Below, piece after piece: positions 1,848 to 6,257 of a stretch of DNA of 16,794 nucleotides (position 1 is its first letter; the number at the start of each line of letters is the position of its first letter). Source of the stretch: Pseudomonas sp. (lineage in GTDB: Bacteria > Pseudomonadota > Gammaproteobacteria > Pseudomonadales > Pseudomonadaceae); NCBI GenBank assembly GCA_003525045.1, contig DQGF01000548.1, positions 6,178 to 22,971 on the forward strand, in the 5' to 3' direction. The notes below the pieces were generated by a model. The model made no database searches, had not been told where the DNA came from, and saw nothing but the letters and a program-made list of their open reading frames with translations. The position numbers and the translations under genes are program-made.

Positions 1848-1870
1848 AAACTAACCAGGTAGTACACTTT
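1848..1870 (+). promoter_or_regulatory. Candidate operator upstream of quiC (shared with aroQ)
   Basis: The 23-base element reads AAACTAACCA, GG, TAGTACACTTT. It matches the element at 6235-6257 (read on the minus strand) at 19 of 23 positions; the common form is AAAYTAACCA, two variable bases, TAGTACANTTT. Its core ACTA-N6-TAGT (1850-1863) is an imperfect dyad with five of seven base pairs symmetric, which suits a TetR dimer. It sits just upstream of, or overlapping, the quiC promoter and also lies in the divergent region facing the transporter. Binding by the TetR protein at 4052-4729 is inferred. Confidence 0.6.
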
Positions 1871-1873
1871 GAA

Positions 1874-1902
1874 TTGCTGTGTGGGATCTGGCAGCCAATA
1901 AT
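1874..1902 (+). promoter_or_regulatory. Possible sigma-70 promoter of quiC
   Basis: TTGCTG at 1874-1879 and AATAAT at 1897-1902 are separated by 17 bases; the -10 matches consensus at five of six positions, the -35 only at three. The candidate operator ends four bases before the -35. An alternative is TACACT at 1863-1868, inside the operator, as the -10, by analogy with TACAAT in the matching aroQ element, but no good -35 is seen for it. The leader would be about 140 bases and would include the REP pair. Confidence 0.35.
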
Positions 1903-1925
1903 CTACTCCAGAAAAATACGCGGTC

Positions 1926-1995
1926 CCTGTAGGAACCTGGCTTGCCGGCGATGACGGCCGCGAGATCGCCATCGCCGGCAAGCCGGGCGTCTACA
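1926..1995. repeat. REP palindrome pair (second sequence type) in the quiC leader
   Basis: GGCTTGCCGGCGATG at 1939-1953 and its exact reverse complement at 1970-1984 form a 15-base stem with a 16-base loop. Flanking bases (CTGTAGGAAC on the left, GCGTCTACA on the right) extend the symmetry imperfectly. This is the TGTAGGAGC-type REP common in fluorescent pseudomonads and differs in sequence from the elements at 1-90 and 4731-4859. It lies about 50 bases upstream of the quiC start, probably inside the transcribed leader. Confidence 0.75.
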
Positions 1996-2047
1996 TAAAA
2001 CCAGCGATGCCTCTAACACGACTGTCTCCACCACCGGGAGTCGATAT

Positions 2048-4859: not shown

Positions 4860-4879
4860 AATCGTTTAAACCTCAGATC

Positions 4880-5734
4880 TCAACCATTCATGCTCTGAAA
4901 ATGCGCCAGCATCCGCTGCGCATCCGGCACCACGCCGCTGAACAATTCAAACGCCTTCACCGCCTGAAACACCGCCATGTTGCCGCCATCCAGCGTCCGG
5001 CAACCCAGGGCGCGGGCATTGCGCAGCAGTTCGGTTTCCAGCGGGAAATACACGATCTCCGCGACCCACAACTCACCTCGCAGCAATTCCACCGGCACTG
5101 GCATGCCCGGCAGTTTTTTCATGCCCATGGGTGTGGTGTTCACCAGACCGTCGGCCTGGGCCAGGGTGCTCGGCAGATCATGCCCGGCGACCGCGCGGCC
5201 AGCGCCGAAATGTTGATTGAGGTTGTTCGCCAACGACTGCGCACGACTCGTATCCACGTCAAAAATGCTCAGCAGTCGTACGCCTTCGCTTAATAAGGCA
5301 TGAGCCACCGCTGCGCCTGCGCCACCTGCGCCCATTTGCACTACGCACTCAAGGCCAACGCCCTGCAGGCCTCTGCGAAAACCTTCGGCAAAACCCAGGC
5401 AATCGGTATTGTGGCCGATGCGTTTGCCGTCCTTCAGTACCACTGTGTTCACTGCGCCGATGCCGCGGGCTTCCGGGGACAATTCGTCGAGCAGTGGAAT
5501 GATCGTCTGCTTGCACGGAAAGGTGATGTTCAGACCGGTGAAGTTCATGCACTCGGCGGCCATCAGCAGGTCGGGCAGGGCGCTGCTGTCGAGTTTCAAC
5601 TGGTCGAGATCGATCAGGCGATAGAGGTAGCGCAAACCCTGGGCATCGCCTTCATGCTCGTGCAGTGCCGGGGTGCGGGAAGCCTGGATGCCGGCACCGA
5701 TCAGTCCGGCCAGTACAGCGTTGGTTTGAGACAT
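4880..5734 (-). CDS. quiB: Quinate/shikimate dehydrogenase, AroE family, NAD type
   Basis: A 284-residue cytoplasmic enzyme that would oxidise quinate or shikimate to 3-dehydroquinate or 3-dehydroshikimate. The N-terminal substrate domain has SRTP (19-22, in place of SLSP of biosynthetic AroE), NITFPCKQ with catalytic K75, and GHNTDCLGF with D111. The Rossmann part has GAGGAG (135-140) and FDVDTSRA, where acidic D159/D161 replace the NRT-type basic pocket of NADP enzymes, suggesting NAD use, as in catabolic dehydrogenases. The frame runs open to 5977, but I chose the ATG at 5734: AAGGGG (5743-5748) is eight bases upstream and homology begins there. The start is five bases past the aroQ stop, so the two are probably translationally coupled. 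A GTG three codons upstream is a minor alternative. The gene could be labelled aroE; context favours the catabolic role. Confidence 0.92.
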   Translation of the reverse strand: MSQTNAVLAGLIGAGIQASRTPALHEHEGDAQGLRYLYRLIDLDQLKLDSSALPDLLMAAECMNFTGLNITFPCKQTIIPLLDELSPEARGIGAVNTVVLKDGKRIGHNTDCLGFAEGFRRGLQGVGLECVVQMGAGGAGAAVAHALLSEGVRLLSIFDVDTSRAQSLANNLNQHFGAGRAVAGHDLPSTLAQADGLVNTTPMGMKKLPGMPVPVELLRGELWVAEIVYFPLETELLRNARALGCRTLDGGNMAVFQAVKAFELFSGVVPDAQRMLAHFQSMNG

Positions 5735-5739
5735 GGCAT

Positions 5740-6180
5740 TCACCCCTTCAAACGCAGGCTGAAATGCTCCAGCGCCAGGCGATAACCGTGGCTGCCGAAA
5801 CCGGCCATTACTGCGGTGGCAATGGCTGAAACGAAGGAGTGGTGCCGGAACGGTTCGCGGGAGTGGACGTTGGAGAGGTGGACTTCGATCACCGGCAGTT
5901 CGCTGGCGACCAGGGCATCGCGAATCGCCACCGAGGTGTGCGTCCAGGCCGCCGGATTGATGACGATCCCAGCGCAACGGCCGCGGGCGGCGTGAATCCA
6001 GTCCAACAGTTCGCCTTCATGATTGGTCTGGCGAAATTCCACCGCCAGTCCGAACTCTTCGGCGGCACGAGCGCACAACAGCGAAATGTCAGCCAGGGTT
6101 TCGTGACCGTATGTCGCCGGCTCACGGGTGCCGAGCAAGTTCAGATTGGGGCCGTTGAGCACCAGAACGATAGGGGGCAT
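5740..6180 (-). CDS. aroQ: Type II 3-dehydroquinate dehydratase
   Basis: A 146-residue enzyme interconverting 3-dehydroquinate and 3-dehydroshikimate; the type II family forms dodecamers. All signature elements are present in order: LVLNGPNLNLLGTREPATYG with R19 and catalytic Y24, QTNHEGELLDWIH, INPAAWTHTS with N75 and H81, and IEVHLSNVHSREPFRHHS with H101 and R112. Length is typical. The start at 6180 has GGAGA at 6187-6191 upstream. It is the first gene of a two-gene operon with quiB; the candidate operator and promoter at 6235-6263 lie 54 bases upstream. Pseudomonads usually carry more than one aroQ, and this copy beside quiB and quiC is probably the catabolic one (aroQ2 type). Confidence 0.95.
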   Translation of the reverse strand: MPPIVLVLNGPNLNLLGTREPATYGHETLADISLLCARAAEEFGLAVEFRQTNHEGELLDWIHAARGRCAGIVINPAAWTHTSVAIRDALVASELPVIEVHLSNVHSREPFRHHSFVSAIATAVMAGFGSHGYRLALEHFSLRLKG

Positions 6181-6234
6181 CGGTTTTCTCCACTTATTAT
6201 TTTTGGAATCGGCCGAGAGGTCCGGCCTGGAGAT

Positions 6235-6257
6235 AAATTGTACTAGATGGTTAATTT
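6235..6257 (-). promoter_or_regulatory. Candidate operator upstream of aroQ-quiB (matches quiC site)
   Basis: Read on the minus strand the element is AAATTAACCA, TC, TAGTACAATTT. It agrees with 1848-1870 at 19 of 23 positions, including the inner TAACCA and TAGTACA blocks, and has the same orientation relative to the gene it precedes. It covers the spacer and -10 of the likely aroQ promoter, an arrangement expected for repression by occlusion. Confidence 0.65.

What the first reader, a model, noticed from the sequence alone, without database searches (positions are those of the whole stretch)
1848..6257. A shared 23-base operator candidate links quiC and aroQ-quiB
The elements at 1848-1870 (plus strand) and 6235-6257 (minus strand) agree at 19 of 23 positions: AAAYTAACCA, two variable bases, TAGTACANTTT. 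Both point towards the quinate-pathway gene they precede, and the second covers the -10 and spacer of a TTGACC/TACAAT promoter. The only regulator gene between them is a TetR protein. This defines a probable two-site regulon and a binding motif for the quinate TetR repressor. The core is only partly dyad-symmetric (ACTA-N6-TAGT), so the exact half-sites are open.
Basis: partly seen in the sequence, partly recalled or inferred. Interest (0 to 1): 0.7.

Follow-up and report, generated by a model that had tools for sequence, protein, structure and literature searches.

The report
Quinate-degradation switch shared by scattered genes
A short DNA landing site in front of scattered quinate-breakdown genes of a Pseudomonas is conserved in its relatives and recurs in root-nodule bacteria next to the same kind of TetR regulator, so this little-studied regulator is very probably the switch of the pathway.

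Summary
Both 23-base elements are present as described. Of the 80 named Pseudomonas loci fetched, 78 of 78 with a placeable quiC carry the element upstream of it, and 72 of 73 upstream of aroQ/quiB. The core at quiC is a 14-bp palindrome, ACTAACY|RGTTMGT, which settles the half-sites. This genome has three copies, not two: the third precedes a PQQ membrane dehydrogenase of the quinate type. The motif tracks the TetR protein: 103 of 127 genomes with it have exact hits, 1 of 22 without it. Beyond Pseudomonas, 8 of 10 annotated quinate/shikimate-linked loci with 43-58% identical TetR proteins have a palindrome at the expected promoter, and the recognition helix is largely kept. The neighbouring LysR gene is present at only 16 of 72 aroQ-type sites. 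At quiC the likely core promoter lies downstream of the operator; at aroQ and quiA the operator fills the promoter. Binding, ligand and sign of control are untested. Gene order from papers suggests the regulator is the orthologue of Pip (PA0243).

The parts
1830..1844 (+). PcaR/PcaU-type box GTTCGATAATCGCAC upstream of the quiC operator
   Evidence: exact at 1830-1844; same offset and at most 3 mismatches in 77 of 78 named loci, at -17/-18 in 18 of 20 distant ones; fits the PcaR and PcaU consensus in PMC8222616 (passages)
1848..1870 (+). TetR operator at quiC; 14-bp dyad 1850-1863, 5 of 7 pairs kept
1874..1902 (+). likely quiC core promoter TTGCTG-N17-AATAAT
   Evidence: TTGNNN-N17 to N19-AWWAWT in 73 of 78 named loci, TTGNNN-N16 to N18-AATAAT in 20 of 20 distant ones
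2048..3949 (+). quiC, 3-dehydroshikimate dehydratase
   Evidence: NF042435 1298 bits, cut-off 1200
4052..4729 (+). TetR-family regulator, the proposed binder
   Evidence: PF00440 and PF17938 above cut-off
4880..5734 (-). quiB, shikimate/quinate dehydrogenase-like
   Evidence: NF009201 468 bits, cut-off 235
5740..6180 (-). aroQ, type II 3-dehydroquinate dehydratase
   Evidence: TIGR01088 191 bits, cut-off 169.85
6235..6257 (-). TetR operator at aroQ-quiB; 14-bp dyad 6242-6255, only 3 of 7 pairs kept
6258..6263 (-). -35 element TTGACC abutting the operator
   Evidence: TTGAC at this place in 65 of 72 aroQ-type sites
6292..6306 (-). degenerate PcaR-like box GTCCGATCACCGCAC, tentative
   Evidence: 3 mismatches; a box with at most 3 mismatches in 54 of 72 aroQ-type upstream regions, most at offsets -38, -49/-50 or -60/-61; no shuffle control was run
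106..1482 (-). MFS transporter, divergent from quiC, possibly controlled from the same intergenic region
   Evidence: PF07690; adjacent to quiC in 68 of 78 named loci; start codon uncertain

Best explanation
The elements are operators of the TetR-family protein encoded at 4052-4729. A dimer binds a palindrome of the form TACKAACYRGTTMGTAC; Pseudomonas sites keep one longer and one shorter half. At aroQ-quiB and at the quiA-type gene outside the window the operator fills the stretch between the -35 and -10 elements, so bound TetR should block RNA polymerase. At quiC the operator lies between a PcaR/PcaU-type box and the likely core promoter (centre about -52, box centre about -72 from a predicted start), so TetR should keep PcaR or the polymerase alpha subunit off. 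A quinate-pathway metabolite would release TetR, and PcaR would add activation while protocatechuate is being consumed. Shown by computation: the sites, the palindrome, their conservation, the third site, co-occurrence with the TetR, the second box. Inferred: binding, repression, the inducer, the interplay with PcaR.
For: Conservation at quiC and aroQ and in 20 of 20 distant genomes that had failed the exact pattern, including 7 where TetR and quiC lie far apart (G024, G057, G081, G103, G117, G134, G145). Third site before a PQQ dehydrogenase, in register in 15 of 17 close relatives of that gene. 103 of 127 TetR-positive against 1 of 22 TetR-negative genomes with exact hits; the one TetR-negative genome with a quiC-like match, G003, has no site. 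Recurrence beside TetR relatives outside Pseudomonas: 8 of 10 annotated linked loci, recognition helix 14 of 15 residues in four Rhizobiaceae. LysR present at 16 of 72 sites only.
Against: No binding, expression or ligand data. Co-occurrence is confounded by joint loss of quiC and TetR. The window's aroQ site is poorly symmetric (3 of 7 pairs), and over all aroQ-type sites the dyad centre is not the best one (3.61 against 3.71). Several of the rhizobial loci are near copies of one operon, so they are not independent; Klebsiella scores below its best shuffle and Azospirillum shows no site in the stretch fetched; 0 of 4 unannotated loci exceed their best shuffle upstream of TetR. At one mismatch the pattern's reversed control exceeds the hits (own genome 4 hits, control 6; G071 2 hits, control 7), so only exact hits carry weight. 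No site lies at the TetR gene where it is unlinked.
Confidence: 0.82

Rival explanations
1. Same operator and same TetR, but the protein activates quiC (site upstream of the -35, about -52) while repressing aroQ and quiA, or activates throughout.
For: Position of the quiC operator relative to the conserved core promoter. Pip, the probable orthologue, is described as a positive regulator of phenazine or pyocyanin genes (passages of PMC9736018, and PMC3684763).
Against: At aroQ and quiA the operator lies inside the promoter. Pip's effects on phenazine genes need not be direct.
Confidence: 0.12
2. The neighbouring LysR-type protein, an IclR protein or another regulator binds the element.
For: LysR lies next to aroQ in the window; an IclR gene lies beside an extra site in some loci (label confirmed in L068).
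Against: LysR (over 60% identity) is present at only 16 of 72 aroQ-type sites. The motif recurs beside TetR relatives, even beside one 37% identical S. meliloti protein without quinate genes nearby.
Confidence: 0.03
3. The conserved block is only promoter sequence plus a PcaR site, with no dedicated operator.
For: It overlaps the promoter at aroQ and lies 3 bases from the PcaR-type box at quiC.
Against: The same dyad sits in different promoter contexts, lacks a PcaR box at quiA (best 5-7 mismatches) and recurs beside TetR genes in Alphaproteobacteria.
Confidence: 0.03

Closest known systems
TetR-family regulators with palindromic operators at catabolic genes
   Same: TetR_N plus TetR_C_29 protein, a palindrome of 14-16 bp at promoters of the linked pathway
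   Different: No curated NCBIfam family names this regulator: all 18 matches are far below their cut-offs, best RutR at 52.5 of 368 bits. Nearest solved chain is 3npi, a TetR family protein, E 2.5e-29
Pip (PA0243), phenazine- or pyocyanin-inducing TetR protein
   Same: Gene order in P. aeruginosa by locus numbers: PA0242 with an HPPD-like C-terminus (PMC5453437 passage), PA0243 TetR (PMC5175280 passage), PA0245 aroQ2 (PMC7775676 passage), as in the window
   Different: Known from phenazine or pyocyanin phenotypes (passages); PMC5175280 says its function and target genes were not known. I obtained no Pip sequence, so orthology is not proved
PcaR/PcaU (IclR family) control of protocatechuate genes
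   Same: The box at quiC fits the PcaR and PcaU consensus in PMC8222616 (passages); the other exact copy in this genome precedes a gene above the PcaK cut-off
   Different: Here combined with a TetR operator; no convincing box at quiA. That paper mentions quinate/shikimate COGs among IclR regulons in general terms, so PcaR-type control of quiC may already have been noted
QuiR of Listeria and QsuR of Corynebacterium
   Same: Regulators of quinate/shikimate catabolism (recalled, from no call)
   Different: LysR-type, not TetR (recalled, not tested)

Membership tests
TetR-family regulator | TetR_N helix-turn-helix above the curated cut-off | tested here: met
   PF00440 49.4 bits, cut-off 24
TetR-family regulator | palindromic operator at controlled promoters | tested here: met
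   dyad at quiC mean 5.53 of 7 pairs, next centre 3.45; weak at aroQ, 3.61
TetR-family regulator | ligand-released repression | not testable with these tools
   no binding or expression data
Pip (PA0243) orthologue | sequence orthology to Pip | tested here: inconclusive
   no Pip sequence obtained; primer search failed; paper not held; gene order only
PcaR/PcaU regulon member (quiC) | consensus box at a conserved promoter position | tested here: met
   77 of 78 and 18 of 20
PcaR/PcaU regulon member (quiC) | binding by and response to PcaR | not testable with these tools
   none
quinate dehydrogenase (third site, outside the window) | membrane PQQ dehydrogenase of the glucose/quinate/shikimate family | tested here: inconclusive
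   TIGR03074 645.6 bits on a 488-residue piece, below the full-length cut-off 832.65; piece cut by the locus end; substrate not tested

The most novel reading that the evidence does not exclude
The TetR here is Pip, and its native job is the quinate regulon. The phenazine effects of Pip would then be secondary: either a quinate-pathway metabolite is its signal, tying plant-derived quinate to antibiotic production, or loss of Pip derepresses QuiC and AroQ and drains 3-dehydroshikimate away from chorismate, the phenazine precursor. The reported rescue of pip mutants by phzR expression (PMC3684763 passage) speaks against the pure drain version.
Probability: 0.3. Interest if true: 0.72.

Novelty: new member of a known kind. 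Interest (0 to 1): 0.5.

Why it matters
It gives a testable operator, a regulon that spans the pathway (periplasmic oxidation, dehydratase, dehydroshikimate dehydratase and, in some relatives, transporters and porins) and a dual-control promoter for the use of a common plant compound. It also offers direct targets for a TetR protein that the passages seen here know only through phenazine phenotypes. No description of a TetR quinate operator in Pseudomonas came up in the ten searches (open-licence papers only; listings, abstract beginnings and passages seen), which does not show that none exists.

Tried and rejected
LysR as binder: rejected (16 of 72 aroQ-type sites). IclR beside TctA transporters (L068, L069, L079): seen in only a few loci, so not the general binder. 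Separate autoregulation of the TetR gene: none of the 7 regions where TetR is clearly unlinked (L219, L221, L226, L228, L230, L233, L235), nor L224, has a match at score 4 or more; no promoter-like or terminator-like match at 3900-4100. TetR may be co-transcribed with quiC. Three further sites (L220:2690, L229:5196, L234:5977) were not assigned to genes.

quiA group B (about 54% identical): 1 of 13 loci L131-L143 has a match above threshold 8, L131, 69 bp upstream of the matched stretch. In 10 of the other 12 the best match of the locus, though below threshold, is a diverged palindrome at the promoter position; L141 and L143 have none there. Five other group B genes have a strong site, at distances of 49 to 166 (L188-L192). 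I first read the 13 as 0 of 13 and corrected this on rechecking.

Hits taken as chance or unexplained: G106 (the only TetR-negative hit), G045, one of G083, and G116 beside a LysR gene. The 1-mismatch hit G000:C138:85 was not examined. QuiC relatives elsewhere in the class (5 of 274 genomes besides the own one) were not scanned for sites.

PA0243 by primer match: 0 of 247 loci for each primer; one exact hit of one primer in 248 genomes, G542, whose region holds no match to the quinate proteins. phz promoters: G071, whose contig coordinates equal those of the P. chlororaphis 14D6 locus L031, has only the quiC and aroQ sites, but no PhzA/B match was found there and the control rang in no genome, so nothing follows.

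Counts with wrong offsets, replaced: quiC promoter in distant loci 8 of 20 and TTGAC at aroQ 0 of 72; one search gives 20 of 20 and 65 of 72.

Not done: structure prediction, fold search, protein trees.

Full report
Observation. In the 5.4 Mb of the own genome that are held (79.66% complete) the pattern with up to three mismatches hits three places, reversed control none. The third, G000:C606:4615-4637, ends 35 bases before the start of a PQQ-dependent membrane dehydrogenase of the glucose/quinate/shikimate family.

Conservation. A scan with the TetR protein gave 80 named Pseudomonas loci, the best of a larger, capped set. Consensus: AAACTAACYGGTTMGTACAYTTT at quiC, AAATTAACCAKYTAGTACAWTTT at aroQ. 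At quiC the best dyad centre is between positions 9 and 10 (5.53 of 7 pairs, next 3.45), that is ACTAACY|RGTTMGT; at aroQ this centre gives 3.61 and a centre outside the site 3.71. The two window sites keep 5 and 3 of 7 pairs.

Genus scan. The exact pattern TAACYRNNNVGTACANWWT hits 104 of 149 genomes, 204 hits; the reversed control gives 10. At one mismatch the control is as large as or larger than the signal, so I rely on exact hits. Calling a genome TetR-positive at a match better than 1e-80 (weakest such 1.9e-88, next 4.6e-40), 103 of 127 positive and 1 of 22 negative genomes have a hit (Fisher p 3.5e-12). This is confounded, since quiC is lost together with the TetR. The only TetR-negative genome with a quiC-like match, G003 (a 269-residue stretch), has neither site nor PcaR-type box near it. 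Of 24 positive genomes without a hit I fetched the quiC upstream of 20; the other four lack quiC or have it in pieces. All 20 carry AAACTAAC followed by a second half-site, with drifted flanks. In 7 of them TetR and quiC are clearly far apart, and the quiC site is kept.

Further targets. Sites in relatives precede quiA-type genes of two groups (group A 15 of 17 in register; group B, see Tried and rejected), a TRAP operon starting with DctQ (L178, L179, L180, L184; DctQ confirmed in L180), an OprB porin (L193, L194; confirmed in L193), and the space between a TctA transporter and an IclR regulator (L068 and its like; confirmed in L068). One site stands upstream of pqqB in G009.

Who binds. The cleanest test is outside Pseudomonas. 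TetR relatives of up to 58% identity sit on plasmids, mostly of Rhizobiaceae. I fetched 19 loci. In 10 the TetR is annotated beside a shikimate dehydrogenase, mostly with quiC and TRAP genes. A matrix built only on Pseudomonas sites was run over 400 bp upstream of each TetR. Of these 10, 7 exceed the best of 60 shuffles (Pararhizobium, R. lentis, Rhizobium K102, R. etli, S. meliloti, Chelatococcus, Sulfitobacter), and Shinella has the site before the shikimate dehydrogenase instead; Klebsiella stays below its best shuffle, and in Azospirillum the TetR is the last gene of the operon, whose promoter lies beyond the fetched stretch. Of 4 loci without annotation none exceeds its best shuffle upstream of TetR, though R. 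tropici has strong palindromes elsewhere in the locus. Of the 5 others 3 exceed it (Skermanella beside pca genes, Tropicibacter, and a 37% identical S. meliloti protein without quinate genes nearby). The three Rhizobium loci are near copies of one operon. In them the site reads TACGAACTAGTTAGTACA. Among 15 of the 19 proteins aligned, four Rhizobiaceae keep 14 of 15 recognition-helix residues; Klebsiella keeps 11 and has a drifted site. The motif follows this TetR subfamily.

Promoters. Starting 18 bases upstream of operator position 1, quiC carries GTTCGATAATCGCAC, which fits the PcaR and PcaU consensus of PMC8222616 (passages): at most 3 mismatches at that offset in 77 of 78 named loci, at -17/-18 in 18 of 20 distant ones. 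In this genome the other exact copy precedes pcaK. Downstream of the operator, TTGNNN-N17 to N19-AWWAWT occurs in 73 of 78 and TTGNNN-N16 to N18-AATAAT in 20 of 20; in three of the five exceptions (L004, L028, L033) an AATAAT lies closer. The quiC operator thus centres near -52 of a predicted start at about 1909. At aroQ, TTGAC abuts the operator in 65 of 72, and at quiA group A a TTG[CT][CT]A abuts it in 15 of 17; there the operator occupies the promoter. A degenerate PcaR-like box upstream of 54 of 72 aroQ-type sites, at offsets about one helical turn apart, is tentative, as no control was run.

Mechanism. Occlusion at aroQ and quiA, and exclusion of PcaR or of the alpha subunit at quiC, is the simplest reading; an activator role at quiC is not excluded. 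Inducer, binding and sign are untested.

Link to Pip. Passages place PA0243, called Pip, between PA0242 with an HPPD-like C-terminus and PA0245 aroQ2, the order of this cluster; PA0244 as shikimate dehydrogenase is recalled. PMC5175280 states that its function and targets were not known. No Pip sequence was obtained, so this rests on gene order by locus numbers.

Assessment. The finding is real and better supported than a reader without tools could know. As a kind it is ordinary, a TetR operator of a catabolic regulon, with a clear and testable extension.

Noticed in passing
window 1830-1844: PcaR/PcaU-type box next to the quiC operator, giving a composite promoter.
   Followed up: yes
window 1928-1995: Inverted repeat (29-nt arms, 83% complementary) between the quiC promoter and the quiC start, REP-like by its look; such inserts might explain the 85-303 bp spread of site-to-start distances.
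   Followed up: no
window 1-80 and 4731-4859: Two more inverted repeats of REP-like look (39-nt arms; 22-nt arms 95% complementary).
   Followed up: no
L181 (G009:C5:76184-76202): An operator-like site 268 bp upstream of pqqB, which makes the cofactor of quinate dehydrogenase; single case.
   Followed up: partly
L002, L034, L090 (G058): Loci with TetR and LysR but no quiC or aroQ match; L002 and L034 keep an operator-like site and L002 and L090 a 44-residue quiB remnant, as if the cluster had been lost between them.
   Followed up: no
L178, L179, L180, L184: TRAP transporter genes preceded by the operator; in rhizobial plasmids TRAP genes lie in the quinate operon, which suggests quinate or shikimate as substrate.
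   Followed up: partly
L279: A 37% identical TetR in S. meliloti, beside ABC-transporter and dehydrogenase genes, has a related palindrome upstream and a second one at 7257; its regulon is unknown.
   Followed up: no
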